From assembly GCF_900110865.1 (NCBI RefSeq), contig NZ_FOFD01000005.1, positions 186,001 to 250,000 on the forward strand: DNA of 64,000 bases, given 5' to 3'. This DNA comes from Natrinema salaciae. GTDB taxonomy: Archaea > Halobacteriota > Halobacteria > Halobacteriales > Natrialbaceae. Numbering within the stretch: position 1 is the first letter of the stretch; each line of letters begins with the position of its first letter. Below the pieces are notes generated by a model. It was not told the origin of the DNA and searched no databases. It worked only from the letters and a program-made list of their open reading frames with translations. Position numbers and translations under genes: made by a program. This document shows positions 15,501 through 47,320 of the stretch, piece by piece.

Positions 15501-15502
15501 CT

Positions 15503-22099: not shown

Positions 22100-25000
22100 T
22101 CAGATCCGCCGGAGCAGCTCGAGGACGTCCGTGAACCCGACCCGATCGTTCTCATCGAAGTCGAACCGCTCGGGATTGTCCTGCACGCCCTCGGACTCGA
22201 GGTTGTCGAAGAGAGCGTTGACGTCGCTGTGAGTGGTCTTGCCGTCCCCATCGATGTCGTTGTACAGCCCGTCGCCCGTCGTGTCCTGGGCCTCGTACTG
22301 GCCGACCGCGATCGCGTCGTCGCTGGTGCCGTCGTCGCCGGTGCTGTCGTCGCCGGCCGGTGCCTCGCCCGTGACGCTCCCGGACACATCGACGTCGCCG
22401 ACGTCCTGGTTGTCGGTCAGTGTCAGACCGGACCAGCTATCGAACTCGGCGGTCGTCAGCGTGCCGGACGCGTGGCTCGTGACGGCGAGGCCGACGTGGA
22501 CGTTCGTGGCGAGCGACAGCGACACCGACGCGAGGAGGGTCCAGTTCTGGCCGTTGTCCGAGCCGTACGCCCGGAGCGTGTCGCCCTCGCGGACGAGTCG
22601 CTGCCAGGCGTGGTCGGTCGTCCCACCGTCGACTTCGCTCTCGCTCTCGCCGGCGTCGGAGGTGAGACTCGTCGACTCCGCGCCCGTGGTGGGACGCCAC
22701 TGGACGGATGTCGAGTCCGGCCGTCGCCGGATCATCAGGTTCGCGGCGTCGGCGTCGAGCGACTCGCGAACCATCAGCCCCGCCTTGGCGTACGCGTCGG
22801 TGTTCTCGAGCGCGTCGACGCGGACGGCGACGTCGAAGTCGCCGGTCGTGGCGCCGTAGTAGTAATGGAACTCGTCGGACGCGTTCCAGATGTCCTCGCC
22901 GCCGCCCTCGACCGTGATGGGGCCGGCGCCGCCGGTCCGATCCTCGTCGGCGCTCTCGGTCGACGCGGTGACCGTCGCCGTCTCGGACTCGTTGCCCGCG
23001 GCGTCGATCGCCCTGACGCCGATCTCGTAGTCGACGCCGCTCTCGAGGCCGCCGAGACGCGTCGACGTCGCGTCCGGCTTGACGGACGTCCGCTGCTGCC
23101 CGTCCACGAGGACGTTGTACCGCCAGATCCCGGAGCCGCCCGCGTCGGTGGATGCCTCCCAGTCGATTTCGATCGAGGAGAGGGTACTGTCCGTGACGGT
23201 GAGTCCGGACGGCGTCGTCGGCGCTTCCGTGTCGCTCTGCCCGGTGTCGTAATCGGGTTCGACCTGGGCCGCCATCTCGTCGAGCCACTGGCGCAGGCCG
23301 CTGTCCGGCACGTCGAGGGTGCGCGTCGTGCCGCCGTGGTCGGGGTAGCCGCCGGCTTCCGCCGCGCTGTCGGGAATGTCGGAGAATCCGGCGTTGTCCC
23401 GGTTGGGATCGACGTCCAGACTCCCCCAGCGATCCTCGATCTGCTGGACGATCTTCGCCTCCTGATCGATCCGCTCGGCGGGACGGGCGCCCGCGTTGGC
23501 CAGATTGTGGGCTTCGGTCTGGCTCGCAGGCAAGGCCTCCAGCCCGCTCGGCCACAGGGGCGGCGAGTCCAGTTCCGTACCGACGTCCGAGAACGGCCGC
23601 CCGTTCAGGGGCGGATCGGCGACGTAGTTGTCGTCCATGTGGACGCTGCCGTCGCCGAAGACGATCGGGTCGCGGAAGCTGAAGCGGTGGATGTAGGCGT
23701 TGCCGACGACGGCCGCCTCCGCGCCCTCGGAGATCCAGATGGCCTTGTCGTGATAGAAGTTCAGGCCGTTGACGACGACGGTCTCGGTATCCGGCTTCAG
23801 CCGCGGGTTACGATCGTTGTTCTTCGCGTAGACTGTCCCCAGGATGGCGACGTTCTTCGCGCCGTCGCCGACGAGCGTCCCGTTGGAGTTCTCCTCGGGG
23901 TCCTCGAGGCCCTCCGCGATCATACAGTTCGCGAGGGTTGTATCGGTCGAGTCGTAGCCGACCGAGAGGTTCTCGTCGCGGCCCCAGAACGCCGTACAGT
24001 GGTTGAAAATGACGTTTTCGGTGCCGTCGGAGCTGTTCATCGGGTCCGTCCCTTCGCCACCGCTCTGATCGCCCCGGAGACAGCGAACGTGCTCCATGAC
24101 GACGTTGTCGGCATCGATCTGAACGAAGCCGTCGATGAACGTGACGCCGGGCGAGGGCGCAGTCTGGCCCGCAACCCAGCAGTTCGGTTCCGAGATCTCG
24201 AGCGTCTGGCTGTCGAGGTCGAGCACCCCGCTCTCCTCGAAGACGATCAGGCGCGGGCCCGCCGTCTCGAACGCCTGTTGGATGGGTTCGTAGGCCAGAT
24301 CCGAGATCGTGATGACCTCGACGTCGTCGTCGAACCAGTCCGTGTCGGCGAACCCGTCCTCCGGCGCGAAGTGCGATCCCCTGGTTCCGCCGTCGGTCGA
24401 ATCCTCCTCGTCGGTCGTCACGGTCGTCGTTGCGGCGTCGGACTCGTTGCCCGCCTCGTCGACCGCGCGAACGGCGACGTCGTAGGTCGTCTCCGGTTCG
24501 AGATCCGAGACCGTCGCGGACGTGGTGTCGGCGGGGACCTGCTGGCTGCGGTCGTCGACGGAGACGACGTAATGTGAGAGTCCGGAGCCGCCCGAGTCGC
24601 TGGCCCCGTCCCAGTCAAGGTCCACGCTCGAGGCCGTCTGGTCGGGCGACTGGACGTTCGATGGCGGCGATGGCGCCGTCGTGTCGTCCTCGGTGCCGTC
24701 GCCGGGATCGACGTTTCCGTCCCCGGCCTCGACTTGCGCCGCCCACTCCATCAGCCACTCGCGCAGGCCGCTGCTCGGCGGGCTCAGCGAGTGGGTGTTC
24801 TCGGGGAGTTCAGGGTAGCCGCCGACCGCATCGGGATTCGGGACCCAGTAGTCGTACGGCGAATCGAGCCGGTCGTTGCCGGCTCGATCCTCGATCTCCT
24901 GGACGATTCGCCGGTCGTGTTCGGTCCGGTCGGCCGGCCGCGCACCCGCGTTGGTCAGGTTGTGGGACTCGACCTCCGAGGACGGCATCGGCTCGAGGCC

Positions 25001-26035
25001 GTCGGGCCACAGCGGCGGCGAGCCGACGGTGCTCGGTTCGACGAAGTCGACGTCGGAATCGAGCGCTGGGTCCGCCGTGACGTTGTCTTCGCCGTAGACC
25101 GTCCCGCTCCCCTCGACGATTTGCTCGCCCGTCGCCGCGGTACCCGTGTACTTGTTGCCGACCCACGCCGTCACCGCGGAGCTGTCGGTGTTCGACGCCT
25201 CGTCGAAGAAGTACGTGAAGTTGTTGACGACGACGCTGCGCGTGTCGCTTTTGAGCCGCGGGATGCGGTTTCGGGCCTTCGACCAAATGTTTCCGAGCAG
25301 CGCGACGCGGTCCGCGCCGTCACCGACCAGCGTACAGTAGTTGTGGTCGGAGCCGTCGCCGTAGGGATCGTACAGCCCCTCGTAGATGAGACAGTTGGCG
25401 TACGTCGTGCGGTCGGTGTCGTAGCCGACGGACATACACTCGTCGGTCCCCCACGAGGCCGTGACGTGGTCGACGACGTTGTTCGTCGTCTCGTCTGCCG
25501 TATTGAACGCGTCGTTGCCCTGAATGTTGCCGTCCGAACCCGGCCCGATCCGCGACCGGATGTGCTGGACGACGCAGTTGCTAGCATCGACCTGGACCAT
25601 CCCCCTGGTGAAGGTGATCCCGGGCGAGGGCGCGGTCTGGCCCGCCACCCAGCAGTTGTCCTCCGTAATCTGTAGCGTCTCGCCGCCGAGGTCGATCGTG
25701 CCGCTGGTCTCGAAGACGACCACGCGCGGGCCGCTGGCGTGGAACGCCTCCTCGAGCGCCTCGCGCGTCGGCTCCGTGACGGTGAGGACCTGCACGTCTT
25801 CTTCCTCGAGCCAGGACGTGTCGGCGAAGCCGTCGTCCAGGCCGAAGTGCGCGCTCGAGGCCGCACCGACCGTTCCGGTCATCGCCGAGCCGCCGAATCC
25901 GCCGAGGATTGCCCCGGCACCGGCGGCTTTCACGAACGAGCGTCGATGCAAGTTCGCGTCTACGGTGCTGTGCTCGTGTTCGTCCTCGTCGATCGATGGA
26001 CGCTGTTCGGATCGGCTATTGTGTTCTCGTGTCAT
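22100..26035 (-). CDS. Secreted multidomain pectate-lyase-like protein (two PL1-type domains, two FN3, dockerin)
   Basis: This 1311-residue protein has a Tat signal (RRSFVKAAGAGAILGG at about residue 31). The order is: parallel beta-helix lyase domain 1 (about 62-435), FN3 (about 455-545), lyase domain 2 (about 555-905), FN3 (about 920-1015), a concanavalin-like/DUF1349-type binding domain (about 1020-1200) and a C-terminal dockerin (about 1250-1311, two Ca-loop motifs DTTGDGLYNDIDGDG and DFDENDRVGFTD). Domain 1 carries VDHVTASWG and RIPRLK, resembling the PL1 W-x-D-H and R-x-P-R elements. Domain 2 has NHCTAFWG instead of DH. It is likely a cell-surface pectate/rhamnogalacturonan-degrading protein. 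The ATG at 26035 opens divergently from the DgoD-like gene. Confidence 0.88.
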   Translation of the reverse strand: MTREHNSRSEQRPSIDEDEHEHSTVDANLHRRSFVKAAGAGAILGGFGGSAMTGTVGAASSAHFGLDDGFADTSWLEEEDVQVLTVTEPTREALEEAFHASGPRVVVFETSGTIDLGGETLQITEDNCWVAGQTAPSPGITFTRGMVQVDASNCVVQHIRSRIGPGSDGNIQGNDAFNTADETTNNVVDHVTASWGTDECMSVGYDTDRTTYANCLIYEGLYDPYGDGSDHNYCTLVGDGADRVALLGNIWSKARNRIPRLKSDTRSVVVNNFTYFFDEASNTDSSAVTAWVGNKYTGTAATGEQIVEGSGTVYGEDNVTADPALDSDVDFVEPSTVGSPPLWPDGLEPMPSSEVESHNLTNAGARPADRTEHDRRIVQEIEDRAGNDRLDSPYDYWVPNPDAVGGYPELPENTHSLSPPSSGLREWLMEWAAQVEAGDGNVDPGDGTEDDTTAPSPPSNVQSPDQTASSVDLDWDGASDSGGSGLSHYVVSVDDRSQQVPADTTSATVSDLEPETTYDVAVRAVDEAGNESDAATTTVTTDEEDSTDGGTRGSHFAPEDGFADTDWFDDDVEVITISDLAYEPIQQAFETAGPRLIVFEESGVLDLDSQTLEISEPNCWVAGQTAPSPGVTFIDGFVQIDADNVVMEHVRCLRGDQSGGEGTDPMNSSDGTENVIFNHCTAFWGRDENLSVGYDSTDTTLANCMIAEGLEDPEENSNGTLVGDGAKNVAILGTVYAKNNDRNPRLKPDTETVVVNGLNFYHDKAIWISEGAEAAVVGNAYIHRFSFRDPIVFGDGSVHMDDNYVADPPLNGRPFSDVGTELDSPPLWPSGLEALPASQTEAHNLANAGARPAERIDQEAKIVQQIEDRWGSLDVDPNRDNAGFSDIPDSAAEAGGYPDHGGTTRTLDVPDSGLRQWLDEMAAQVEPDYDTGQSDTEAPTTPSGLTVTDSTLSSIEIDWEASTDAGGSGIWRYNVLVDGQQRTSVKPDATSTRLGGLESGVDYEIGVRAIDAAGNESETATVTASTESADEDRTGGAGPITVEGGGEDIWNASDEFHYYYGATTGDFDVAVRVDALENTDAYAKAGLMVRESLDADAANLMIRRRPDSTSVQWRPTTGAESTSLTSDAGESESEVDGGTTDHAWQRLVREGDTLRAYGSDNGQNWTLLASVSLSLATNVHVGLAVTSHASGTLTTAEFDSWSGLTLTDNQDVGDVDVSGSVTGEAPAGDDSTGDDGTSDDAIAVGQYEAQDTTGDGLYNDIDGDGKTTHSDVNALFDNLESEGVQDNPERFDFDENDRVGFTDVLELLRRI

Positions 26036-28111: not shown

Positions 28112-29839
28112 TTACGGCGAGCTGGCGTTCGGGTCCTCGACGGCCAGCGCCCACTGCTCGACCCAGTCGCGCAGGCCGCTGCTCGGCGGGCTCAGCGAGT
28201 GGGTGTTCTCCGGCAGGCTCGGGTAGCCGCCGACGTCGTTGTGATCGGCGATCCAGTAGTCGTACGGCGAATCGAGGTACGCGTCACCGTCTCTGCCTTC
28301 GATCTCGCTGACGATTCTCGAGTCGTTGTCGGTCCGGTCCGCCGGTCGCGCCCCGGCGTAGGCGAGGTTGTGGCTTTCCACGCTTCCGGCGTCCATCGTT
28401 TCGAGTCCGCTCGGCCAGAGCGGCCGACTCGACAGTTCGCTGGTCCCGCCGGTCAGCGGCGTCGAACTGGGGTCCGTGACGTTGTCCTCGAGGAAGGCGT
28501 TGCCGCCCTCGATCGGCGTGTCTTCGACGTCCTGTGGGATGTAGAGGTTGCCGACGATCGAGGCGTCCGAGTCCCCGTCCATGGCGGTCGCCTCGTTGAA
28601 GAAGTACATCACGTTGTTGGCGACGACGCTACGCGTGCCGCCTTTCAATCGGGGGACGCGTGCTCGAATCTTCCCCCAGACGTTGCCTGCCAGCGTGACG
28701 TTCTCGGCGCCGTCGCCGATCAGCGAACCGTAGTTGTGGTCGGAGCCGTCGCCGTAGGGATCGTACAGCCCCTCGTAGACGAGGCAGTTGGTGACGGTGG
28801 TGTCGTTCGTGTCGTATCCCACCGAGAGACACTCGTCGACTCCCCACGAGGCAGTGACGTGGTCGACGACGTTGTTCGTCGTGTCGTCGGCCGTGTTCAG
28901 CGAGTCGTTGCCCTGAATGTCCCCGTCAGAGCCGGGCCCGATCCGCGAGCGAATGTGCTGGACGACGCAGTCGTTCGCGTCGATCTGGACCATGCCCTTG
29001 ATGAAGGTAATACCGGGCGACGGCGCGGTCTGGCCCGCCACCCAGCAGTTGTCCTCCGTAATCTGTAGCGTCTCCCCGCCGAGATCGATCGTGCCGCTGG
29101 TCTCGAAGACCACCAGCCGTGGACCGCTGGTCTGGAAAGCGTCCTCGACGGCGCTGCGGGTCGGTTCGGTCACTTTGATGACCTGGACGCTGTCGTCGAA
29201 CCACGAGGTGTCGGCGAAGCCGTCGTCGAGACCGAACTCCGACGTGGTGCCGCTGTTACCGCCGTCACCGCCATCGCCGCCGCCGTCGCCGCCGTCGCCC
29301 GAGAGCTTCTCGAGGTCGAAGCGCTGGTTGTCGCCGCCGTTGTCCTCCCAGGTGAGGACGTCGGCACCGTCGTCGGTCGACTTACCTTCGACGTCCACGA
29401 CCTTCCCGGTGTGGACGTTTGTGATGCTGTACTGGCCGTTGCTATCCTGGGTGACCTCCCAGCGCTGCCAGTCGACGTTGGCCCATCCGTACTGGATGCA
29501 CGAGGTGCCGTTCCCGTTACCGGTCCCCTCGATGTCCAGTACCTTGCCGCTGTGGACGTTGACGATTCGATAGACGTTCCCCGAGAGGTGTTCGAACCGC
29601 CAGCGCTGGTTGTCGCCGCCGTTCCAGGAGTACTGCTGGACGTTCGCGCCGTTTTCGGTGGATTTGGCCGCCAGATCCAGTGCCTTCCCGCTGTGGACCG
29701 GCGTGATGCGGTAGATTGCGCCGTCCTCGACGCCGGCGGCGTCGGCCGCCGCCGATCCAGCCGCACCGCCGAGCGCACCGAGGGCAATTCCTGTCGATCC
29801 GATCGCTTTCTTCAAGTATGCTCTTCGTGAGTGTGTCAT
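28112..29839 (-). CDS. Secreted pectate-lyase-like protein with ricin-type lectin domain
   Basis: This 575-residue protein has a Tat signal (SRRAYLKKAIGSTGIALGALGG), a ricin B-type beta-trefoil lectin (about residues 38-180; three repeats with Q-x-W, such as NQRWRFE, WQRWEV, NQRFDL), a Gly/Asp linker and a PL1-like beta-helix domain (about 205-570). The lyase domain keeps VVDHVTASWG and RVPRLKGG. It resembles lyase domain 1 of the 1311-residue protein more than that protein's own domain 2. The region upstream of the ATG at 29839 is AT-rich with a dyad; a TTG at 29845 is the alternative start. It probably attacks pectate at the cell surface. Confidence 0.88.
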   Translation of the reverse strand: MTHSRRAYLKKAIGSTGIALGALGGAAGSAAADAAGVEDGAIYRITPVHSGKALDLAAKSTENGANVQQYSWNGGDNQRWRFEHLSGNVYRIVNVHSGKVLDIEGTGNGNGTSCIQYGWANVDWQRWEVTQDSNGQYSITNVHTGKVVDVEGKSTDDGADVLTWEDNGGDNQRFDLEKLSGDGGDGGGDGGDGGNSGTTSEFGLDDGFADTSWFDDSVQVIKVTEPTRSAVEDAFQTSGPRLVVFETSGTIDLGGETLQITEDNCWVAGQTAPSPGITFIKGMVQIDANDCVVQHIRSRIGPGSDGDIQGNDSLNTADDTTNNVVDHVTASWGVDECLSVGYDTNDTTVTNCLVYEGLYDPYGDGSDHNYGSLIGDGAENVTLAGNVWGKIRARVPRLKGGTRSVVANNVMYFFNEATAMDGDSDASIVGNLYIPQDVEDTPIEGGNAFLEDNVTDPSSTPLTGGTSELSSRPLWPSGLETMDAGSVESHNLAYAGARPADRTDNDSRIVSEIEGRDGDAYLDSPYDYWIADHNDVGGYPSLPENTHSLSPPSSGLRDWVEQWALAVEDPNASSP

Positions 29840-29886
29840 AGCCAAACACCACCAACGACTATTGCTTCATTCATATTAAAACTTTA

Positions 29887-34051: not shown

Positions 34052-34996
34052 TCAGGTCGTTTTCCCCAGCGCCGTCGTCCGGAGTCGCTCGTAGTACTCC
34101 TCGAGACGCGCCGCGTCGTCGTCGTCGAGGTCGACCAGCGGGTCGCGGACCGCGCCACCCGTGTACCCCGCGAGGTCCATGCCGTACTTGACGACGGGGA
34201 CGTTGTTCGCGGCCGGTAGCGTCCCCGTCCCGGACTCCTCCCGGAGGTCCTCGATCGGACGGAGCAGCCGCTGGATCGAGCGGGCCCGCTCCCAGTCCTC
34301 GTTCTCGACGGCGTCGAACAGTGCCAACGTCGCCGCCGGCGCGAAGTTGCCGAGGCCGGTGGTGTACCCCGCCGCGCCCTCGAGAGCGAACGCGAGGGCG
34401 TACCGCTCGGCGATCCCGTTGACCCAGGTTACGTCGCCGGGCGCGTCCGCGACGGTCTGGGAGAATTCCGCGATGTCGTCGACCGCGAACTTCACGGCGA
34501 CGACATTCTCGCGCTCGCTCAGTTCGCAGATCACGTCCCGGGTGATCTCGGGGCCGCGCTTGTAGACGACCACGCCGAGGTCGGTCGCGTCGCAGATCCG
34601 GTGATAGTAGCTACGCAGTCCGTCCTCGTGGGCGTAGGTGTGGTCGGGGTGCATCACCATGACGGCGTCCGCACCGGCGTCCGCGTAGGCGTCGGCGAGC
34701 CGCCTGACCTCCTCGAGGCTGCCGCCGACACCGCCGGCGATCGTCGCGCCGTCGCCGGTCGCCTCGACGTGGGTCCGAACGATCCGGGTTCGCTCCTCGT
34801 CGGTGAGCGCGTAGTACTCGCCGGTGTTGCCACAGGCGATGAACAGGCGAGCGCCGGCGTCGTACTGCCTCGCGAGGTTGTCGGCGAGTTCGTCGACCAA
34901 CACGTCGCATCCGTCGTCGCTGAACGGGACGGCGGTCGTGAACGCGACGTCCCGAAAGCTCTCTCTGAGGGTGGCTCGAGCCATGTCGTGGCCCAT
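34052..34996 (-). CDS. DapA/KdgD-family dehydratase-aldolase (second KdgD-like paralogue)
   Basis: This 314-residue class I aldolase-fold protein shows Tyr in VVYKRGPEI at about residue 145 (the family's Y-N-R position, as in KdgD) and the Schiff-base Lys in VVAVKFAVDD at about 170. It is clearly related to the protein at 9470-10408, and both carry MVM-PDHTY. The reaction predicted from context is 5-keto-4-deoxyglucarate to 2-oxoglutarate semialdehyde. The ATG at 34996 is used; an in-frame ATG at 34984 is possible. The gene is convergent with the one before and divergent from the dehydratase at 35234. Confidence 0.85.
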   Translation of the reverse strand: MGHDMARATLRESFRDVAFTTAVPFSDDGCDVLVDELADNLARQYDAGARLFIACGNTGEYYALTDEERTRIVRTHVEATGDGATIAGGVGGSLEEVRRLADAYADAGADAVMVMHPDHTYAHEDGLRSYYHRICDATDLGVVVYKRGPEITRDVICELSERENVVAVKFAVDDIAEFSQTVADAPGDVTWVNGIAERYALAFALEGAAGYTTGLGNFAPAATLALFDAVENEDWERARSIQRLLRPIEDLREESGTGTLPAANNVPVVKYGMDLAGYTGGAVRDPLVDLDDDDAARLEEYYERLRTTALGKTT

Positions 34997-35233
34997 ACTA
35001 CGACGAACTGCCGTGATAAATGTACCTCACCGACGCCCGGCAGACGGGGCGGTGGGGCTCCGCGAGGGAACGCCCAGTTGCGGCCACGAGACCCGTCAGC
35101 GCGGCCGCCGTTTCCGCGATCGTGGCCGGGCGCTTCGGGAAGCGCATCGACGAGCGTGAGCGGCGCTGCCAGCCTCTCGTCTCGCACCGAGGTCAACGCA
35201 AGCTATATTGGTCACGAGTCTGTCGGCTTTGCC

Positions 35234-36367
35234 ATGGAGATCACGGACATTCAGACGATTCCGCTCGCTCACTCGGTACCCGAGGGGCAGGGGCTCGGCG
35301 ATGCCCGGGGGTTCGGCACCGACCGCGGAACGACGCTCGTTCGACTCGAGACCGACGACGGGACCGTGGGCTGGGGCGAGGCGTTCGCGCCGGGGCCGAT
35401 CGCGACGGCGACGGTCGAGGAGCTGTTCGCCGATGCCGTCGTCGGCATGGACCCGTTCGCGGTCGAATCGCTGGCCGAGACGGCCTACACTGACCCGTAT
35501 CACTTCGGCGGCGACGTGTTCGTCCAGAGCGCCGTCAGCGCGATCGACGTCGCCTGCTGGGACATTATCGGTAAGTCGGTCGGACGGCCGGTTCACCGGC
35601 TACTCGGCGGCACACACTGCGAGGAACTGACACCCTACGCCTCGACGATGTACTTCACCGAGGTGGACCGGCCGATCGACGAACCGATTCGCGAGGCCGT
35701 CGCAGCCGGGTTTTCCGCCGCGAAGATCAAGATCGGCTCCGGCCTCGAGGCGGACGTCGAACGCGTCCGTACGGCCCGGGAGATTCTGGGCGACGACGCC
35801 GACCTGATGGTGGATATGAACGGCAACTACCGTCCGCATCAGGCCCTCAGGTCGGCTCGCGCGATCGCCGAGTACGACGTGGCCTGGATCGAGGAGCCCG
35901 TTCCGCCGGAGAACGAGTCCGGATACCGCGAACTGCGCGAGAAGGTCGACGTGCCGATCGCGGCCGGCGAAGCGCACTACGGCCGCTTCGCGTTCAAGCG
36001 ACTGATCGACGACCGGGCGGTCGATATCGTCCAGCCGAACCTCGGGCGCTGTGGCGGCCTCTCGGAGGCGCGATTGATCGCCGGCATGGCGTCGACCGAG
36101 AACGTGGCCGTCAGGCCCCACGTCTGGAACAGCGCCGTCGGGATGGCCGCTGCGATCCAGTTCGCTGCGAGCGTGTCGAACTATCCACACACGCGGCACG
36201 TCCCCGAGCCGATGCTGCTCGAGTTCGACCGCAGCGAGAATCCGCTCCGGAGCGAGCTGCTGGAGACGCCGTTCGACCCGTCCGGCGGCACGATCGACGT
36301 TCCCCAGGAGCCGGGGTTGGGAATCGAGATCGACCGCGACGCGCTGGAACGGTACCGCGCCGATTGA
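35234..36367 (+). CDS. Enolase-superfamily acid-sugar dehydratase (mandelate racemase type, K-x-K/His)
   Basis: This 377-residue protein is of the mandelate-racemase subgroup. The catalytic K-x-K (AKIKIGSG) is at about residue 165, and metal ligands are at DMNGNY (about 195), EEPV (about 220) and AGEAHYG (about 246). The catalytic His is in RPHVWNSAVGMA at about 297. The frame is open back to 34601, but the upstream part is Arg/Gly-rich, and the ATG at 35234 gives the family N-terminus MEITDIQTIPL. This catalytic set suits galactarate, glucarate or aldonate dehydration. Of the three dehydratases in the island it is a good candidate for the galactarate step after uronate dehydrogenase. Confidence 0.87.
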   Translation: MEITDIQTIPLAHSVPEGQGLGDARGFGTDRGTTLVRLETDDGTVGWGEAFAPGPIATATVEELFADAVVGMDPFAVESLAETAYTDPYHFGGDVFVQSAVSAIDVACWDIIGKSVGRPVHRLLGGTHCEELTPYASTMYFTEVDRPIDEPIREAVAAGFSAAKIKIGSGLEADVERVRTAREILGDDADLMVDMNGNYRPHQALRSARAIAEYDVAWIEEPVPPENESGYRELREKVDVPIAAGEAHYGRFAFKRLIDDRAVDIVQPNLGRCGGLSEARLIAGMASTENVAVRPHVWNSAVGMAAAIQFAASVSNYPHTRHVPEPMLLEFDRSENPLRSELLETPFDPSGGTIDVPQEPGLGIEIDRDALERYRAD

Positions 36368-36956: not shown

Positions 36957-37796
36957 ATGGACGTGCTAGTGACTGGCGCGTACGGCCGGTGTGGAACCGC
37001 GATCATCGACCACCTCCACGACGACGATCGATACGAATTCACGTACTACAACCGATCGGGGCGGGCGGACGACGACCCCTACGGCGGGTACGAAACCGTC
37101 GTCGGTGACATCGCGGACTACGACACCCTCCGTGAGGCCTGCGAGGGGATGGACGCCATCGTTCACCTCGCGGCGTATCCGTACACCGACGGGGAGTGGT
37201 CCGACATCTTCGAGCCGAACGTCCTCGGGATGTACAACGTCCTCGAGGCCGCTCGCGAGGCCGAGGTGGAGTCGATCGTTTTCGGGTCGACCAACCACGT
37301 GATGGGGATGTACGAACTCGAGAACGCCCCCGAAATCTACGAGCGCGACCACGACCTCGTCGTCGACCACACCGACCCCGTCCGACCCGACTCCTACTAC
37401 GGTGCGTCCAAGAGTTTCGGCGAGGATCTGGGCCGGTACTACGTCGAGGGCTATGAGTTCCCGACGCAGTTCTACGCGCTCCGGATCTGCAGCGTCCGGA
37501 GCGAGGAGTACGACCATCCCTACGGCGACGCCGAGATCGGCGTCGCGGCGGGCGAGTGGGAGCGTGGCAGCGACGAGTACGACGAGCAGGTCGCGCGGAT
37601 GAAAGCCACGTGGCAGTCCCGCCGGGATTTCGCCCACCAGATCGACTGCTGTCTGCAGGACGACAGCGTCGCGTTCGATATCTTCAGCGGCGTCAGCGAC
37701 AACCGCCGGCGCTGGTACGACCTCGAGCACGCTCGCGCGCGGATCGGGTACGATCCGCAGGACGACGGCGAGGAGTGGACCGCGCCGCCGGAGTAA
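36957..37796 (+). CDS. udh: Uronate dehydrogenase-like NAD-dependent epimerase/dehydratase
   Basis: This 279-residue extended-SDR protein has the Rossmann motif TGAYGRCG at the N-terminus, HLAAYP at about 71, FGSTNHVMG with the catalytic Ser/Thr at about 105-110, and SYYGASK (Tyr-x-x-x-Lys) at about 145. The segment HVMGMYE and the C-terminal DNRRRWYDLEHAR resemble uronate dehydrogenases, which oxidise D-galacturonate or D-glucuronate to an aldaro-lactone. It lies 50 nt after the Usp gene and among dehydratases, which supports the oxidative hexuronate pathway. The name is by similarity and context. Confidence 0.85.
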   Translation: MDVLVTGAYGRCGTAIIDHLHDDDRYEFTYYNRSGRADDDPYGGYETVVGDIADYDTLREACEGMDAIVHLAAYPYTDGEWSDIFEPNVLGMYNVLEAAREAEVESIVFGSTNHVMGMYELENAPEIYERDHDLVVDHTDPVRPDSYYGASKSFGEDLGRYYVEGYEFPTQFYALRICSVRSEEYDHPYGDAEIGVAAGEWERGSDEYDEQVARMKATWQSRRDFAHQIDCCLQDDSVAFDIFSGVSDNRRRWYDLEHARARIGYDPQDDGEEWTAPPE

Positions 37797-37929: not shown

Positions 37930-39384
37930 CTAGTAGTTCATGTAGACCGTCTTCGTCGAGGTGAAGAAGTCGAGGCCGGCGTCGCCCTGTTCGCGGTAGG
38001 TGTCCGTCGAGGAGTCCTTGTACCCGCCGAAGGGGACGTGGAGTTCGAGACCGGTCGTCTTTTCGTTGACCTTCGCGACGCCGGCCTCGACGGTCTCGGC
38101 GAACTCGTTGGCCTCGGCGAGATCCTGCGTGACGATGCTCGCGGAGAGGCCGTAATCGATGTCGTTGGCGACTTCGAGGCCCTCCTCGAAGCTGCCGACC
38201 CGCAGCACCGCCAGTACGGGACCGAAGACTTCCTCCTGTGCGATGCGCATGTCGTTGGTCACGTCCGAGAAGACCGTCGGCTCGACGAAGTAGCCGTCGT
38301 CGTACTGCCCGTCGGTGAGCCGCTCGCCGCCGGTCTCGAGGGTCGCGCCGTCTTCCTCGGCGGCGATCTCGACGTACTCGAGGGTGCCCTCGAGTTCGCT
38401 GTTCGTGACGTGGGGGCCCATGTCGGCGTTCTCGACGCCGGGAGCGATCTCGATCGACTCGGCGTAGTCGGTGATCCCCGCGACGAACTCGTCGTAGACG
38501 TCCTCGTGGACGATCGCCCTGGAACAGGCCGTACAGGCCTGTCCGGTGACGCCGAACGCCCCGGCACCGACGATATCGACCGCCTCGTCGACGTCGGCGC
38601 TGGGCATGACGACCGTCGGGTTCTTCCCGCCCATCTCACACTGGACGCGTTTGAGGTCGTCCGTGGCGTCACGTGCGACGGCGGTGCCGACTGCCGTGCT
38701 CCCGGTAAAGGAGACGGCGTCGACGCCCTCGTGGTCGGTCAGCGGCGCACCGACCGCGCTCCCGGAACCGGCGACGAAGTTGGCGACGCCGGCGGGCAGC
38801 CCCGCGTCGTCGAGCGCCTCGATCAACTTCCACGCGACGGTCGGGGCCGCCGAAGCGGGTTTGAGGACAGCCGTGTTGCCAGCCGCCAGCGCGGGGGCGA
38901 GTTTCCAGGCCGGGATCGCGATTGGGTAGTTCCACGGCGTGATCAGCCCGACGGTTCCCAGCGGCTCGCGTTTCGTATAGAGGGTCGTGTCCGTGCCGCT
39001 GGACGACTTGACGGTGCCGCCGAGGTCGCTGGCTTTCTGCGCGTAGTAGCGGAAGATGTCGATCGCCCGCTGGACTTCGCCGCCGGCCTCGTCGAGTGTC
39101 TTGCCTTCCTCGCGCGTGAGTGTCTCGGTGAGCTCGTCTTTCTGTGCTTCGAGGCGCTGAGCCGCCTCCTCGAGGATCGTTCCCCGTTTTGGACCGGGCG
39201 TCGACGCCCACTCGTCCTCGGCGGCGACCGCAGCCTCGATCGCCGCTTCGGCGTCTTCGGTGGTCGACGACTGGAACTCGGCGACGACCTCGTCGGTGTT
39301 CGCGGGGTTCAGTACCTCGAACGTATCTCCGGAACGCGATTCGACCCACTCTCCGTCGACGTAGTTGCGGTGCGCTATTGGCAT
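37930..39384 (-). CDS. Aldehyde dehydrogenase, candidate 2-oxoglutarate semialdehyde dehydrogenase
   Basis: This 484-residue ALDH shows TPWNYP at about residue 145, the segment FTGSTAVG at about 225, the general-base segment CEMGGKNP with Glu at about 248, the nucleophile region GQACTACSR with the catalytic Cys at about 285, and the C-terminal PFGGYKDSS. In the oxidative uronate route the last step converts 2-oxoglutarate semialdehyde to 2-oxoglutarate, and this gene's location next to uronate dehydrogenase suggests that role. Succinate semialdehyde or betaine aldehyde activity cannot be excluded from sequence. Confidence 0.9.
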   Translation of the reverse strand: MPIAHRNYVDGEWVESRSGDTFEVLNPANTDEVVAEFQSSTTEDAEAAIEAAVAAEDEWASTPGPKRGTILEEAAQRLEAQKDELTETLTREEGKTLDEAGGEVQRAIDIFRYYAQKASDLGGTVKSSSGTDTTLYTKREPLGTVGLITPWNYPIAIPAWKLAPALAAGNTAVLKPASAAPTVAWKLIEALDDAGLPAGVANFVAGSGSAVGAPLTDHEGVDAVSFTGSTAVGTAVARDATDDLKRVQCEMGGKNPTVVMPSADVDEAVDIVGAGAFGVTGQACTACSRAIVHEDVYDEFVAGITDYAESIEIAPGVENADMGPHVTNSELEGTLEYVEIAAEEDGATLETGGERLTDGQYDDGYFVEPTVFSDVTNDMRIAQEEVFGPVLAVLRVGSFEEGLEVANDIDYGLSASIVTQDLAEANEFAETVEAGVAKVNEKTTGLELHVPFGGYKDSSTDTYREQGDAGLDFFTSTKTVYMNY

Positions 39385-40540: not shown

Positions 40541-41590
40541 TCAGTCCGATAGCCCGTCGTCGGGGAGCGAGTACCTGTCCGCGAGATCGATCCGCGCGTC
40601 GGCGCGGCCGGACTCGTAGGCGGCCATCGTAACGATCAGCGTCCTGAACGCGTCTCGGACCGTGATCGGCGGGTCGGCCCCCTCGCGGACCGCCTCGGTG
40701 AACGCTTCGGCCTTGGTCTGTCGGCCGTAATAATCGAGGGACGGGTCGTGTTCGGTTCCTTCGGCATCGATCGTGTAGCCGGTGCGCTCGTTCCACTCCC
40801 GTCCCTCCAGGTAGACTGCACCGTCGTCGTCCCAGATGTGGATGTGCTCACGCGTACACGCGACGATACCCGTATCCGAGACGGTGGCCACCGCACCGTT
40901 CTCGAACTCGATGGTGATCGAGGACTGTTCGTCGAAGCGCTGCTCGTCGTCGTGAAACTGGACGGTGGCGTCGACGTGTGTCGGCGTGAGTCCGGTCACC
41001 CACAGGATCGCATCGATAACGTGCGACCCGACGTTCAGGAGGTGACCGCCACCGCTTAGCTCGGGGTCCATCCGCCAGTCGTCCATGGTTTCGTAGTACG
41101 ACCGCCAGTCGTGGGTGATCTCGCCGGTGATGAACGTCGGGTCGGCGTCGCCCGCCGCCCACCGCTCGCGGGCCCTGATGAACGCGGGGTTCAGGTGCCG
41201 CTGATAGCCCAGCATCACCACCCGGTCGGTTTCCCGATCGCGCCGGTAGAGATCGCGGGCGTCCTCGACGGAGGTCGCCAGCGGTTTCTCGCAGAGTACG
41301 TGGAGATCCCGTTCGAGCGCGGCGACGGTCTGGTCGTAGTGGAGCCCGTTCGGCGTGGCGATCGCCGCCGCGTCGAGGGGGCCCTCGTCGAGCATCGTCT
41401 CGTAGTCCGTGTACCGATTCGACGGCGCTACCTCGAGTTCGGTGCCCGCGTCGGCCAGGTTCGCCTCGTCGATGTCGGCTATCGCGACCAGTTCGGCGTC
41501 GGAAACGCCATCGAACTGTCGTCCGAGTCGGACGCCGAGGCTACCGAGTCCGACGAGTCCGACGCGGAGAGCTGCTGATGAGTTGCCCAT
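40541..41590 (-). CDS. Gfo/Idh/MocA-family oxidoreductase
   Basis: This 349-residue NAD(P)-dependent oxidoreductase has an N-terminal Rossmann fold (GLVGLGSLGVRLG), the conserved EKPLATS segment at about residue 90 with the catalytic-type Lys, and GYQRHLNPAFI at about 120. The C-terminal domain is of the GFO_IDH_MocA_C type (HLLNVGSHVIDAI at about 170). Members oxidise sugars, inositols or sugar acids. Context suggests a uronate or sugar-acid substrate. An in-frame ATG lies at 41605; 41590 fits a TTATTT element about 25 nt before it. Confidence 0.85.
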   Translation of the reverse strand: MGNSSAALRVGLVGLGSLGVRLGRQFDGVSDAELVAIADIDEANLADAGTELEVAPSNRYTDYETMLDEGPLDAAAIATPNGLHYDQTVAALERDLHVLCEKPLATSVEDARDLYRRDRETDRVVMLGYQRHLNPAFIRARERWAAGDADPTFITGEITHDWRSYYETMDDWRMDPELSGGGHLLNVGSHVIDAILWVTGLTPTHVDATVQFHDDEQRFDEQSSITIEFENGAVATVSDTGIVACTREHIHIWDDDGAVYLEGREWNERTGYTIDAEGTEHDPSLDYYGRQTKAEAFTEAVREGADPPITVRDAFRTLIVTMAAYESGRADARIDLADRYSLPDDGLSD

Positions 41591-41688
41591 GTCGTAGTCA
41601 CGCATACAGGCAAATAACCTATAATTGTTTTGTTCGATCGTTCTTCAGCGGACGAATATCGATAGCGGACGAAGCCGTAGAATCGACG

Positions 41689-43239
41689 TCAGGAGCGTTC
41701 GATCGTCACGTCGCTATCGGCTGCCACCTCGACGTGTTCGGCCAGCGAGCCGTGGTTTCCGGCGAAGGAAATCTCGTCGGTCTCCGACCCGCTCGCCTCC
41801 AGGAAGGGGCCGTCGGACTGCGGCGCGCAGCCACGTACTCGCGTTCGACCGACGTTCGTCAGGGAGACGGCCGGGGCGGACTGCGAGTCCGGTACCCGAA
41901 GGCCGTCGATCGTCACGTCCTCGGTCTCCTCGAACCGCATCGCCGGGCTGCCGGGCGTTCGGAGCCGGACGTCGGTAAACGAAATGTCGGCGATCGACTT
42001 GCAAAACAGGCCGTGGGTCTGCTCGTAGTCGTCGGCCATCGCGGGATCAAGGTCCGTCGCGTCGAGCGATCGGGTCGCGTCGATCCGGACGTCGGTAAAC
42101 GAGATGCCCTCGAAGTACTGTTCGGGCAGGCCGGCGAAGAAGCCGGCGGTTTCGACCTCGCGGGCGGTGATGTTGGTGAAGGAGACGTTCCGGACCATCG
42201 GCGTCCCCTCGTCGATCGGTTCGGGATCGCTGTCGAGCGGTGTAAAGTAGTAGCCGTTGATGACGAACGGGCAGGCGGTCCGCCGCATGACGATGTTGGC
42301 AAAGCGGAGATCCTCGACGACGCCGCCGCGGTCGCGCCGAGTCTTTATTCGGACACCGCGGTCCGTCCCGGTGAACGTGCAGTTGGTGACCGTGACGTCT
42401 CGGACGTCGCCGGACATCTCGCTACCGACGACGATGCCGCCGTGGCCCGCCTCCACCGTACAGTTGGTCACGGTGATCTGGGAGGCCGGTTCGCCGACGT
42501 CTCGTCCTTCGCCGTTCTTGCCGGACTTGATACAGATCGCGTCGTCGCCCGCGTTGATGTACGTATCGCTGATCCGGACGTACTGCGAGGAGTCGATGTC
42601 GATCCCGTCGCCGTTGGGCGCGTCCGCGGGATTCTCGATGGTTACGTCGTGGATCGTGACGTTCTTGGAGTAGACGACGTGCGTGTTCCAGAACGGGGAA
42701 TTTCGGAGGGTGACGCCCGAGACGCTGACGTTTTCGGAGTCGACGACCTGGAACAGCGGCGGCCGGTGGGTGAAACTGCTGACGTCGTCTTGCTTCTCGT
42801 TTCGCTCCTCGAACTCGGCCAGCCGTTCTCGAAGGCCCTCCGGGATCGCCGACTCGGGGGCATCGTAGAACTGCCACCAGTACTGACCGGTGCCGTCGAT
42901 CGTCCCGCGCCCGGTGATCGACACGTTCTCGGCGTCGTCGACGAGCAGGCAGGGGTGGAATCCGACCTGCTCCCATCCCTCCCAGCGGCTCTCGACCGTC
43001 GGATACGCGTCGTAGTCGTCGACGAACTGTAGCGTCGCTCCCGCGTCCAGGTACAGGGTCGTGTGGTCGCCCACCCGCAGCGGGGCGGTCACGTACGTGC
43101 CCGGTGGAACGTACACAGTCCCGCCGGACTCGGCGCACTCATCGAGCGCAGTTTGAATCGCATCGGTGTCGGGATCGTTCGAATCGTCGATCGCGCCGTA
43201 CTCGCGGATATCGAACCGGCCCGTGTTCGGTACAGCCAT
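41689..43239 (-). CDS. Glycoside hydrolase family 28 (polygalacturonase), intracellular
   Basis: This 516-residue right-handed beta-helix enzyme shows the GH28 motifs NGDGID at about residue 210 (N-x-D type), GDDAICIKSG at about 233 (the two catalytic Asp), GHGGIVVGSE at about 265 (His) and RGVRIKTRR at about 290 (R-x-K). It would hydrolyse galacturonan from oligosaccharides. No signal peptide is visible after the ATG at 43239, although most relatives are secreted, so it probably acts in the cytoplasm on imported oligomers. The frame is open upstream to 43311, but the residues there do not form a clear export signal. Confidence 0.88.
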   Translation of the reverse strand: MAVPNTGRFDIREYGAIDDSNDPDTDAIQTALDECAESGGTVYVPPGTYVTAPLRVGDHTTLYLDAGATLQFVDDYDAYPTVESRWEGWEQVGFHPCLLVDDAENVSITGRGTIDGTGQYWWQFYDAPESAIPEGLRERLAEFEERNEKQDDVSSFTHRPPLFQVVDSENVSVSGVTLRNSPFWNTHVVYSKNVTIHDVTIENPADAPNGDGIDIDSSQYVRISDTYINAGDDAICIKSGKNGEGRDVGEPASQITVTNCTVEAGHGGIVVGSEMSGDVRDVTVTNCTFTGTDRGVRIKTRRDRGGVVEDLRFANIVMRRTACPFVINGYYFTPLDSDPEPIDEGTPMVRNVSFTNITAREVETAGFFAGLPEQYFEGISFTDVRIDATRSLDATDLDPAMADDYEQTHGLFCKSIADISFTDVRLRTPGSPAMRFEETEDVTIDGLRVPDSQSAPAVSLTNVGRTRVRGCAPQSDGPFLEASGSETDEISFAGNHGSLAEHVEVAADSDVTIERS

Positions 43240-43931: not shown

Positions 43932-44705
43932 ATGGCAAACACCCCCAAAAAACCAACCGGACGCCGGATCCGATCAGTAGAGATCGCGTTCACTATCCTC
44001 GACGCCGTCCGCAACCACGACGGCATCGGCGTGACCGAACTGGCCGACGAGCTCGGCCACTCGAAGAGCACGATTCACAGCCACCTCCAGACCCTCGAGA
44101 GTCAAGAGGTAATCGTTCGTCACGGCGACGGCTACCGGCTGAGTCTCCAGGTACTGGACATGGCAAACGACGTCCGCGATCAGATCGCCAACTACGACGT
44201 GATCGTCGATGAGGTGGACGAACTGGCGACCGAAACGGGGGAAATCGCTCAGTTCGGCCTCGAAGAGCACGGGAACGTCTCCTATCTCTACAAAGCGATG
44301 GGGAATCGCGCAGTCGAAACGGCATCACGCGCTGGCGGGAAACAGCCCATGTACTCGACCTCCCTCGGCAAGGCCATCCTCGCGTTTCTTCCGACCGACA
44401 GACGGGAATCTATCATCGATGATGCGGCGTTCGCTTCGAAAACGCCCAACACGATCACCGATGCGAGCAGACTCTACGAGGAACTCGAGGAGATCTCCGA
44501 GCGAGGGTACGCAACCGACGACGAGGAAAACATCGAGGGGCTCCGCTGCGTCGCCGCTCCCGTCCGAAACGAGCAAACGGTGCTCGGTGCGATCAGTATC
44601 ACCGGCCCGGCCAGTCGGATCACGGACGACTACCTTCACGGCGAGCTCGCCGAGAGCGTCCAACGGGCCGCGAACGTCATCGAACTCAACACCAAGTTCT
44701 CGTAA
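43932..44705 (+). CDS. IclR-family transcriptional regulator of the uronate island
   Basis: This is a 257-residue protein with a winged helix at about residues 12-75 (GVTELADELGHSKSTIHSHLQTL) and an IclR effector domain from about 90 (LGKAILAFLPT and GYATDDEENIEGLRCVAAPV are visible). It lies inside the island, divergent from the GH28 polygalacturonase, and probably senses a uronate catabolite such as a keto-deoxy acid. The dyads at 43584, 32111 and 8916 are candidate binding sites. It resembles the first IclR protein at 356-1156 in length and sequence pattern. Confidence 0.92.
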   Translation: MANTPKKPTGRRIRSVEIAFTILDAVRNHDGIGVTELADELGHSKSTIHSHLQTLESQEVIVRHGDGYRLSLQVLDMANDVRDQIANYDVIVDEVDELATETGEIAQFGLEEHGNVSYLYKAMGNRAVETASRAGGKQPMYSTSLGKAILAFLPTDRRESIIDDAAFASKTPNTITDASRLYEELEEISERGYATDDEENIEGLRCVAAPVRNEQTVLGAISITGPASRITDDYLHGELAESVQRAANVIELNTKFS

Positions 44706-44890: not shown

Positions 44891-45256
44891 ATGACGGACA
44901 ACCCGCGATACGAACCCCGCATCACGAACGAGACGCTCTACCTCGAACACGACCACCACCGCCTCGAGGTCGGATCGATGGAGACAGTCGTCGAGTTGGT
45001 CGGCGGCGAAACGTACACCCTCGAATACACCGACCGGCAGAGCGCAGCCGCGTGGCTGTCGACGGGCGACGACAATACGGTCACGTTCGACGTCCGCGAG
45101 GTCGTGGGTGAGATGACCCACACCCGGGATTTCGTCACGAACCTCGAGAATTGTCCGATCGACGAGACGGATGCTGACGGTGTTCCGAAGCGAACGGCGC
45201 TGTTCGTCGACCTCCTCACCGACATCTGGGAGTCGAAGGGGAACCTCGACGGGTAG
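44891..45256 (+). CDS. Hypothetical haloarchaeal protein, 121 residues
   Basis: This acidic soluble protein (MTDNPRYEPRITNETLYLEHD...) with alternating hydrophobic and charged residues suggests beta-strand structure. No domain or catalytic motif was recognised. The frame is open upstream to 44705, but that part is unlike protein, and an ATG is present at 44891 with a TTTAT element about 36 nt before it. It is flanked by the IclR gene and the 633-residue unknown gene on the same strand. Confidence 0.6.
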   Translation: MTDNPRYEPRITNETLYLEHDHHRLEVGSMETVVELVGGETYTLEYTDRQSAAAWLSTGDDNTVTFDVREVVGEMTHTRDFVTNLENCPIDETDADGVPKRTALFVDLLTDIWESKGNLDG

Positions 45257-45418: not shown

Positions 45419-47320
45419 ATGTTCGAGATCGAGGCGAGTGAGTCGCTCGCACGGCCTCCCGATTGGGCCGTGTTGCAACGAACGCTGCTCGAGACGATGG
45501 CCGACGCCGTCGATCGGTTCGCCGACGGGTACTTCGACGAGAGCGGCGAGCCCTACTGGCCTCCCGACGACCACGTCGGGATCGACGGCTTCGACGATCT
45601 GCTCGAGGGCTTTTGCAATTGGCCGCTTGTGTACGCGATGGGCGGCGACGAGCGGTTCCTCGAGCACGCGCGGGAGGCGTACGAGGGCGCACTGAAACGG
45701 GGTCGCGAGACCGAGACCCCGTTCGGGCATCCGATGGTCGTCGACGAGTTCGAGCAGTGTCGCGACTGGTTCCACCTGGGCGAGGGCAACCGCTTTATCT
45801 ACAACATGGGTCTAGCGGCGCCGGACGACGAGACCGTCGTCGACCGGGCCGAGCGGTTCGCGCACCTCTACTTCGATGACGCGGACGTGAACAACTACGA
45901 CGGCGAGAAACGGCTCGTTCGAGCGCCCCAGACCGGGAGCATGGGACCGGAGTACAGCGACCTGTCCGCCTTCGGTGACCGGTCGACCTTCGGCGGCTAC
46001 GGCTCCGACTACCGCTGGGCGAGCCACGGACTCCCGTGGCGAGACACGGCGTTCGACGAAGCGGCCGAACTGCTCGACCCGGCGAACGAGGAGCGACTCT
46101 ACGAGATCTACCGCGAGCGCTGTTCCCGTGGCGACATCCCCCTCAACCTCGGAATCACGAGCCTGATGACGAACGCCTACCTCCACACCGGCGACGACCG
46201 GTACCGGGACTGGGTGATCGAGTACCTCGAGGCCTGGCGCGAACGCACGGCCGAAAACGGCGGTATCATCCCCGATAACGTCGGGCTGTCGGGCGAAATC
46301 GGCGAGTACACCGACGGGAAGTGGTACGGCGGTTTCTATGGCTGGTCGTGGGGCGGCTGGCACTACGTCGGCATCGGACCGACGGTCGCCGCGGAGAACG
46401 CTGTCCTGCTGGATGGCAACCGGGAGTATCTGGCGTTCCCGCGCTCACAGCTCGACGTATTGATCGAGAACGGCATCGAGGTTAGCGAAGGCCCAGTCCA
46501 CGACACGCTGTACGTCCCGCACAAGTACGGCGACCCCGGGGATTACCACTACGACGCGTCGGGCGTACTCACGGAGGACGACGGCGAGGTCCTGTGGCGC
46601 GACGGCTGGTACGAGTTCAAGCCCCACAGGGACGATCCGTACGCGTTCCACCTCTGGTATCTGTCCCTCGCCGAGGGCGATCGCGAGCGCGTCGATCGGC
46701 TTCGCGACTGGGGCAGCCAGGACTGGAAGCAGGTCGACTTCCGGACCTCGACCAAGCACGGCGCCGGCGAGGAATACGCCTGGCTGGCGTATCTCGACGG
46801 CGACTTTCCCGACTATCCCGAGCGACGCATGGAAGCCGCCCACGCCCACGTCCAGGATCGGCTGGCTCTCGTGCGCGAGGATGGCGGTGTTCCCGCCGAT
46901 CTCGACGAGGACTACCTCCGCAATCGAAACCCGGTCTTTCACCGGGGGTTGCTCCAGCTCACGATGGGATCGCCACAACCCGTCTACTACGGCGGTCTCG
47001 TCATGGCACAGGTCCGCCACTTCGACGCCGAGCGCGAGCGGCCGGGACTCCCGCCGGGCGTCTCCGCCCTGGTCGAGGACGTGACCCGTGAGGGGGTCTC
47101 CCTCACGCTGGTCAACGGTGGCGGCACGGACCGCGAACTGATCGTGCAGGCCGGCGCCTACGGCGAACACGAGTTCGCGTCGCTCGAGTACGGCACCGAG
47201 CGCGCGCGGCCCGCGTCAAACGCGATCCGTGTCTCGCTCCCGAGCGGCTCCCGCGTCTCGCTGTCGGCGGCGCTCGATCGCTTCGTGAACGATCCGACCT
47301 ACGCGGTTCCCTGTGAGTAG
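45419..47320 (+). CDS. Uncharacterised 633-residue protein, probable alpha/alpha-toroid
   Basis: This intact 633-residue protein has no signal peptide, so is probably cytoplasmic. Its Trp/Tyr/Gly/Asp-rich repeating helical segments (FCNWPLVYAMGGDERFLEHA, DWFHLGEGNRFIYNMGL, NGGIIPDNVGLSG, GFYGWSWGGWHYVG, PVYYGGLVM) resemble the hairpin repeats of (alpha/alpha)6 barrels such as GH, PL and hydrolase families. A smaller beta-rich C-terminus follows (about residues 545-633). I cannot name the family. Its position downstream of the IclR gene in the uronate island suggests a role in uronate-oligosaccharide processing. The ATG at 45419 is about 28 nt after an AAATATTAA element; the frame before it is not protein-like. 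Confidence 0.75.
   Translation: MFEIEASESLARPPDWAVLQRTLLETMADAVDRFADGYFDESGEPYWPPDDHVGIDGFDDLLEGFCNWPLVYAMGGDERFLEHAREAYEGALKRGRETETPFGHPMVVDEFEQCRDWFHLGEGNRFIYNMGLAAPDDETVVDRAERFAHLYFDDADVNNYDGEKRLVRAPQTGSMGPEYSDLSAFGDRSTFGGYGSDYRWASHGLPWRDTAFDEAAELLDPANEERLYEIYRERCSRGDIPLNLGITSLMTNAYLHTGDDRYRDWVIEYLEAWRERTAENGGIIPDNVGLSGEIGEYTDGKWYGGFYGWSWGGWHYVGIGPTVAAENAVLLDGNREYLAFPRSQLDVLIENGIEVSEGPVHDTLYVPHKYGDPGDYHYDASGVLTEDDGEVLWRDGWYEFKPHRDDPYAFHLWYLSLAEGDRERVDRLRDWGSQDWKQVDFRTSTKHGAGEEYAWLAYLDGDFPDYPERRMEAAHAHVQDRLALVREDGGVPADLDEDYLRNRNPVFHRGLLQLTMGSPQPVYYGGLVMAQVRHFDAERERPGLPPGVSALVEDVTREGVSLTLVNGGGTDRELIVQAGAYGEHEFASLEYGTERARPASNAIRVSLPSGSRVSLSAALDRFVNDPTYAVPCE

What the first reader, a model, noticed from the sequence alone, without database searches (positions are those of the whole stretch)
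45419..47320. Uncharacterised 633-residue protein in the pectin island
The protein is intact, lacks a signal peptide and has the aromatic-rich helical repeats expected of an (alpha/alpha)6 toroid plus a beta-rich tail. It sits next to the IclR gene and in a locus with lyases that would produce unsaturated oligouronides, yet no obvious unsaturated-uronyl hydrolase is present. It may be a new intracellular lyase or hydrolase.
Basis: inference. Interest (0 to 1): 0.7.

Follow-up and report, generated by a model that had tools for sequence, protein, structure and literature searches.

The report
Unnamed sugar-acid enzyme in pectin cluster
A salt-loving archaeon carries an intact, ring-shaped enzyme of a widespread but nameless family that in its order is inherited together with pectin-cutting genes, and it probably finishes breaking down imported pectin fragments inside the cell, although no experiment has yet shown this.

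Summary
Window 45419-47320 encodes an intact 633-residue protein under purifying selection, without a signal peptide. A confident AlphaFold2 model (pLDDT 92, pTM 0.94) shows an (alpha/alpha) toroid plus a C-terminal beta-sandwich. No Pfam, NCBIfam or PDB-sequence match exists for it or for 69 relatives, although at least 561 stretches in sequenced genomes encode relatives. Among 392 genomes of its order the family tracks an exo-polygalacturonase GH28 (29 both, 2 family only, 3 GH28 only, 358 neither). In 26 of 29 the two lie within 60 kb. All complete family-positive genomes also carry the PL1 pectate-lyase type. This genome has no GH88/GH105, PL22, PL2 or KduI. The only two genomes with PL1 and GH28 but no family gene (one genus) carry PL2 beside the cluster. 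Best reading: a cytosolic, probably exo-acting enzyme that breaks imported oligogalacturonides into monomers, hydrolase somewhat likelier than lyase. The fold matches GH47, GH76, GH88 and AGE structures about equally, so fold does not decide the reaction. Haloarchaea with such genes have not grown on pectin (PMC9726719), so the natural substrate is open. A good candidate for a new CAZy family; function inferred, not shown.

The parts
45419..47320 (+). Family gene: 633-aa protein, uncharacterised (alpha/alpha) toroid enzyme, predicted cytosolic
45461..47011 (+). Toroid part (residues 15-531); invariant ionisable residues in 70 members D59, E63, H119, E122, D239, Y269, R276, D286; nearly invariant D60, D116, N243, E296, Y307, K446
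   Evidence: DSSP of models; conservation
47012..47278 (+). C-terminal beta-sandwich (residues 532-620) with invariant D536, R541, E583, H584
44894..45256 (+). Conserved 120-aa companion protein of unknown function
   Evidence: 51-80% identity upstream of or near the family gene in haloarchaea, mostly Natrialbaceae; no Pfam/NCBIfam match
43932..44705 (+). IclR-type regulator; start inferred
   Evidence: ORF; IclR annotated at the same place in H. turkmenica
41689..43236 (-). GH28 exo-polygalacturonase without signal peptide; start inferred
   Evidence: PF00295 1.3e-48; best PDB match 3jur exo-poly-alpha-D-galacturonosidase 5.9e-56
40541..41605 (-). Gfo/Idh/MocA oxidoreductase, recurrent in the cluster
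   Evidence: 69% identical copy in the PL2-type cluster of G177
37930..39384 (-). 2,5-dioxovalerate (alpha-ketoglutarate semialdehyde) dehydrogenase
   Evidence: NF052305 846 bits over cut-off 750
36957..37796 (+). Probable uronate dehydrogenase
   Evidence: best PDB matches are uronate dehydrogenases 6mfh/3rft
35201..36367 (+). Enolase-superfamily sugar-acid dehydratase; start inferred
34052..34996 (-). KdgD-like 5-dehydro-4-deoxyglucarate dehydratase
28112..29845 (-). Secreted PL1-type lyase with ricin-type lectin domain
   Evidence: pectin lyase B 1qcx 4.6e-7 over residues 237-464
22100..26035 (-). Secreted protein with two PL1-type domains, fn3 and DUF1349
13305..19883 (-). ABC importer (dipeptide/oligopeptide type), solute-binding protein to ATPases
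   Evidence: ORFs; PF00496 for the binding protein; same module in the H. xanaduensis and Halarchaeum clusters

Best explanation
The protein is a cytosolic carbohydrate-active enzyme that takes oligogalacturonides imported by the ABC transporter and cuts them, probably from one end, into monomers or dimers. The secreted PL1 lyases make fragments whose non-reducing end is a 4,5-unsaturated galacturonate. An exo-polygalacturonase such as the neighbouring GH28 should not pass such an end, so another enzyme must remove it or cleave behind it. The monomers then enter the sugar-acid route encoded alongside (uronate dehydrogenase, dehydratases, KdgD-like enzyme, 2,5-dioxovalerate dehydrogenase). Shown: intact gene, fold class, absence of the known enzymes for this step in the genome, near-perfect inheritance with exo-GH28 and PL1. 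Inferred: cytosolic location, substrate, exo action and reaction type. Hydrolysis is favoured slightly over beta-elimination because most invariant or nearly invariant residues at the inner-helix ends are acidic (D59, D60, E63, D116, E122, D239).
For: Family x exo-GH28 in 392 Halobacteria genomes: 29/2/3/358; 26 of 29 within 60 kb on the same contig. Family x PL1: 29/2/25/336, the two exceptions being incomplete MAGs; 29 of 31 genomes with PL1 and exo-GH28 have the family. A PL1 gene often lies directly beside it in relatives. Three genomes with only broken or partial family copies (G011, G025, G329) also lack the exo-GH28. No GH88/105, PL22, KduI or PL2 in this genome. The two exceptions, G177 and G244, carry a PL2 gene 6-7 kb from GH28. 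In bacteria operon-like neighbours are sugar ABC importers, enolase-type, UxuA and IlvD/EDD dehydratases, HpcH aldolases, aldo/keto reductases; in Asticcacaulis kdgD, an MFS transporter and a cupin. Toroid model with pLDDT 92.
Against: No biochemical data. 16 of 31 family-positive genomes also have a strong GH88/GH105. Bacterial neighbourhoods speak of sugar acids in general, not of pectin, and KduI/KduD-type genes for the unsaturated product were not seen there. Haloarchaea with GH28, PL1 and PL22 genes did not grow on pectin or polygalacturonate (PMC9726719). Co-occurrence was not corrected for phylogeny, and the PL2 replacement is a single genus. Fold search does not single out a uronide enzyme.
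Confidence: 0.5

Rival explanations
1. It is specifically a 4,5-unsaturated galacturonyl hydrolase: a third unsaturated-uronyl-hydrolase family beside GH88 and GH105, acting by hydration of the double bond with two aspartates at inner-helix ends.
For: No PF07470 gene in this genome; 15 of 31 family-positive genomes lack a strong GH88/105; UGL 1vd5 is among the structural neighbours (Z 13.3, rmsd 5.2, 307 aligned); conserved D116 and D239 sit at the N-termini of successive inner helices.
Against: No sequence homology to GH88/105 (hhalign probability 7.5). GH47, GH76 and AGE match as well. G177/G244 have PL1 and GH28 but neither this family nor GH88. No KduI over cut-off in any of 52 genomes tested, so the fate of the product is unclear.
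Confidence: 0.25
2. It is a cytosolic exo-oligogalacturonate lyase, a functional stand-in for PL2 (or PL22), cutting by beta-elimination.
For: The only two PL1+GH28 genomes without the family carry PL2 beside GH28. PL2 5a29 is a structural neighbour (Z 10.2, rmsd 4.6, 385 aligned). The only Pfam family matched weakly by more than one member is Alginate_lyase PF05426 (3 of 70, best E 0.035).
Against: G177 and G244 are one genus, so one event; five PL1+GH28 genomes have both genes (one PL2 copy with a stop). Invariant residues are mostly acids, not the Tyr/His/Asn/Arg set usual in toroid lyases (own knowledge). No homology to PL2 (hhalign probability 0.3).
Confidence: 0.22
3. It hydrolyses saturated uronides (an exo-uronidase on GalA- or GlcA-containing oligosaccharides or glycosides), in bacteria mostly not of pectin origin.
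For: Bacterial neighbours are aldonic-acid dehydratases, UxuA and importers rather than unsaturated-uronate genes.
Against: In haloarchaea exo-GH28 and often GH4 already cover saturated GalA ends.
Confidence: 0.15
4. It is an isomerase or epimerase of a sugar or sugar acid, like AGE/YihS-type toroid enzymes.
For: Several of the best Foldseek matches are AGE-type isomerases and epimerases (E 2.6e-4 to 2e-3).
Against: AGE-type catalysis uses two or more conserved histidines (own knowledge); only H119 is invariant in the toroid. AGE enzymes lack the beta-sandwich.
Confidence: 0.1

Closest known systems
GH88/GH105 unsaturated uronyl hydrolases
   Same: Single-chain (alpha/alpha) toroid; expected place in the pathway; acidic residues at inner-helix ends
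   Different: No sequence homology, extra C-terminal beta-sandwich, longer loops; reaction untested
PL2 (exo-oligogalacturonate lyase, (alpha/alpha)7)
   Same: Toroid; sits in the same haloarchaeal clusters and is found where this family is missing
   Different: No sequence homology; no PF06917 match; PL2 metal/Arg residues not identified here
GH47 and GH76 mannosidases
   Same: Highest structural Z-scores (14.3 and 13.7 for the toroid)
   Different: 8-12% identity; Z values nearly tied with several other families; no sequence match to their Pfam profiles
AGE/YihS isomerases and cellobiose 2-epimerases
   Same: Toroid; best Foldseek E-values for the toroid
   Different: Only one invariant His in the toroid; no beta-sandwich in AGE
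GH127 beta-L-arabinofuranosidases
   Same: Toroid plus beta-sandwich, about 640 residues, whole-length Foldseek alignment
   Different: Low TM-score (0.25-0.33); GH127 Zn/Cys site (own knowledge) has no counterpart: no Cys is among the conserved residues

Membership tests
GH88/GH105 (PF07470) | Match to the PF07470 profile | tested here: not met
   No match for it or 69 relatives at E up to 1; none in the whole genome
GH88/GH105 (PF07470) | (alpha/alpha)6 toroid fold | tested here: inconclusive
   Toroid confirmed; 1vd5 Z 13.3, 4xuv Z 12.2, nearly tied with other families; six or seven hairpins not settled
GH88/GH105 (PF07470) | Hydration of the 4,5-unsaturated uronyl end | not testable with these tools
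   Needs an enzyme assay
PL2 (PF06917) | Match to the PF06917 profile | tested here: not met
   No match in any of 70 members; hhalign probability 0.3 against seven haloarchaeal PL2
PL2 (PF06917) | (alpha/alpha)7 toroid fold | tested here: inconclusive
   5a29 Z 10.2 with 385 aligned for the whole model; not among the 50 rows shown for the toroid alone, which proves nothing
PL22 oligogalacturonate lyase (PF14583) | Match to the PF14583 profile | tested here: not met
   No PF14583 match among 70 members; none in this genome
AGE/GlcNAc 2-epimerase superfamily | Two or more catalytic histidines in the toroid | tested here: not met
   Only H119 invariant within the toroid across 70 members
Any PDB-represented family | Detectable sequence homology to a solved chain | tested here: not met
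   Profile searches with 19 and 70 members: no hit at E up to 10

The most novel reading that the evidence does not exclude
This protein founds a new CAZy family of cytosolic oligouronide-cleaving toroid enzymes, present in many bacterial phyla and in haloarchaea. In haloarchaea it is the missing step between pectate-lyase products and the galactarate pathway, doing the work of GH88/GH105, PL22 or PL2.
Probability: 0.45. Interest if true: 0.7.

Novelty: new variant of a known kind. Interest (0 to 1): 0.56.

Why it matters
A family with at least 561 matching stretches in sequenced genomes and no profile, structure or name is a real annotation gap. A strong genetic link to two defined pectin enzymes gives a concrete substrate guess, which such families rarely have. 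If right, it adds an enzyme class for unsaturated or saturated oligouronides and completes a pectin route in archaea. It also bears on an open puzzle: haloarchaea carry full sets of pectin genes but have not been grown on pectin (PMC9726719).

Tried and rejected
Pfam and NCBIfam on the protein and on 70 members: nothing beyond scattered weak hits; Alginate_lyase in 3 of 70 at E 0.035 noted only as a lead. PDB sequence searches with the single protein and two profiles: nothing meaningful. Viral contigs and phage records: no relatives. Profile comparison with GH88/105 and PL2: no homology; the local GH88 match covers only generic toroid helices. Structure search with the toroid alone to break ties: GH47, GH76, GH88, AGE all Z 12-14; PL2, PL5, PL8 and similar lyases are not listed among those rows, which is no evidence against them. 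Shared promoter dyads between this gene, GH28 and the other cluster genes: none found; shared 7-mers are GC-rich background. Literature by locus tags and accession: nothing; those tags were partly guesses. Htur_4786, called a family 2 lyase in PMC3102087, was traced to the neighbouring PL2 gene (WP_012945801), not to this family (old-to-new tag mapping inferred from gene order). A first GH88 alignment used wrong frames and was redone.

Full report
Observation. Window 45419-47320 (+) is an intact ORF of 633 residues starting at ATG. The frame stays open upstream to a GTG at 45275, but relatives start at the same methionine. Compared with four relatives, dN is 0.07-0.21 and dS 0.55-1.33, and third codon positions vary most. 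It is therefore a working gene, not a chance ORF. The N-terminus is not hydrophobic and has no twin-arginine. The protein is acidic (19% D+E, 9% K+R), as expected for a haloarchaeal cytosolic protein.

Where it comes from. The window is part of a 341-kb contig of a 4.86-Mb genome. Same-genus genome G008 has a contig of the same length, with the family gene at the same position, as Natrinema sp. DC36 record NZ_CP084473, so the window is probably from a Natrinema species (inference). Many homologues sit on large plasmids such as pHTUR02 and pHALXA01.

Family. Pfam, NCBIfam and PDB sequence searches find nothing for the protein or for 69 relatives, apart from scattered weak hits. The bacterial members examined are about 28-45% identical to the window protein. 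In a tree the haloarchaeal members group on one side of a branch among bacterial ones (support 94, midpoint root), which fits a single transfer. Most members look cytosolic; a few have a hydrophobic upstream stretch.

Structure. The AlphaFold2 model has mean pLDDT 92.1 and pTM 0.94. It shows a toroid of helical hairpins (residues about 15-531) followed by a beta-sandwich (532-620). The toroid alone folds equally well. Structure search returns mostly toroid sugar enzymes: GH47 Z 14.3, GH76 13.7, unsaturated glucuronyl hydrolase 1vd5 13.3, D-mannose isomerase 13.0, GH105 12.2. The Z-scores are close together, so the fold class is clear and the family is not. Invariant ionisable residues in 70 members are D59, E63, H119, E122, D239, Y269, R276 and D286 in the toroid; D60, D116, N243, Y307, E296 and K446 are nearly so. 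D59/E63, D116/H119/E122 and D239/N243 lie at the start of successive inner helices, where toroid glycosidases keep their catalytic groups (inference from the helix map).

Genetic context here. The neighbouring GH28 has no signal peptide and is closest to an exo-poly-alpha-D-galacturonosidase. The secreted lyases are PL1-like. Also present are an ABC importer, a probable uronate dehydrogenase, enolase-type dehydratases, KdgD-like proteins and a 2,5-dioxovalerate dehydrogenase above its curated cut-off. Together these give a route from polygalacturonate to 2-oxoglutarate, apart from the handling of unsaturated ends. The genome has no GH88/GH105, no PL22, no KduI and no PL2.

Co-inheritance. In 392 Halobacteria genomes the family (fragmentary copies excluded) occurs in 31. 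Strong exo-type GH28 occurs in 29 of those and in 3 of the other 361. In 26 of the 29 the two genes are within 60 kb on one contig; a strong GH88/105 gene is that close in only 2. GH88/105 genes instead tend to lie near a different, weaker-scoring GH28 type. The PL1 type is in 29 of 31; the two without are MAGs of 66% and 78% completeness. Broken or partial copies of the family gene are found in G011, G025 and G329, which also lack the exo-GH28. These counts are not corrected for phylogeny, but within the window's genus the intact gene, exo-GH28 and PL1 occur together in G000, G008 and G022, while the other sampled members lack both the intact gene and the exo-GH28.

The informative exceptions. 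G177 and G244 have PL1 and exo-GH28 but no family gene, no GH88/105 and no PL22. Both carry a PL2 gene 6-7 kb from the GH28. G177 also keeps the cluster's Gfo/Idh and ABC binding protein, and both keep the small companion protein. H. turkmenica has both PL2 and the family gene. This suggests overlapping roles in cytosolic oligogalacturonide breakdown, but it is one genus and one event.

Bacterial context. Operon-like neighbours in 67 bacterial loci include oligosaccharide ABC importers with DUF3502 binding proteins, PhyH, aldo/keto reductases, RraA-like aldolases, enolase-superfamily dehydratases, Gfo/Idh, UxuA and IlvD/EDD. In Asticcacaulis the gene follows an MFS transporter near kdgD and a cupin. 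The common theme is sugar acids. Pectin enzymes are not generally adjacent there, so bacterial members may act on other uronides.

Mechanism. I place the protein after import and before the monomer pathway: it opens oligogalacturonides that the exo-GH28 alone cannot finish. Whether it hydrates the unsaturated end (GH88-like), eliminates (PL2-like) or hydrolyses saturated units is not decided; the acidic active-site candidates favour hydrolysis slightly. The link to pectin genes is shown; substrate and reaction are inferred.

Caution from the literature. One study of polysaccharide-utilising haloarchaea reports isolates with GH28, PL1 and PL22 genes that do not grow on pectin, polygalacturonate or rhamnogalacturonan (PMC9726719). 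An earlier genome comparison describes the H. turkmenica genes as pectin-degrading from sequence only (PMC3102087). The true polysaccharide may differ from plant pectin.

Verdict. I regard this as a candidate founding member of a new carbohydrate-active enzyme family of a known structural kind.

Noticed in passing
window 44894-45256 (+): Conserved 120-aa protein without any Pfam match, upstream of the family gene in Natrialbaceae and also present in the PL2-type clusters of G177/G244 (47% identity); a possible second unknown component of the pectin cluster.
   Followed up: partly
between window 44705 and 45419; compare L042 13153-15258: In H. turkmenica a PL1 gene lies between the IclR gene and the small ORF/family gene, and several other relatives also have a PL1 gene directly beside the family gene; here no PL1 gene lies there, so it seems to have been lost or moved.
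   Followed up: partly
window 22100-26035 (-): One secreted protein with two PL1-type domains, two fn3 domains, DUF1349 and a C-terminal acidic repeat that looks like a dockerin/EF-hand type domain.
   Followed up: no
window 10459-13232 (+): Two adjacent UxaA/GarD-type dehydratase ORFs, the second with an N-terminal SAF domain, possibly a duplicated altronate/galactarate dehydratase.
   Followed up: no
L042 8266-9960; G022, G008, G258, G385, G343, G062, G177, G244: Haloarchaea hold PL2 (PF06917) proteins in pectin clusters; the H. turkmenica one has no evident signal peptide.
   Followed up: partly
L006/L010/L012/L014 (G011), L007/L011 (G025), L004/L009 (G015): Related haloarchaea carry broken copies of the family gene; in G011 and G025 the exo-GH28 and PL1 genes are missing too.
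   Followed up: partly
window 30136-30966 (-) and relatives L052, L054, L056, L058, L061: A ThuA-like gene recurs next to or near the family gene in haloarchaea; its role in the pathway is unexplained.
   Followed up: no
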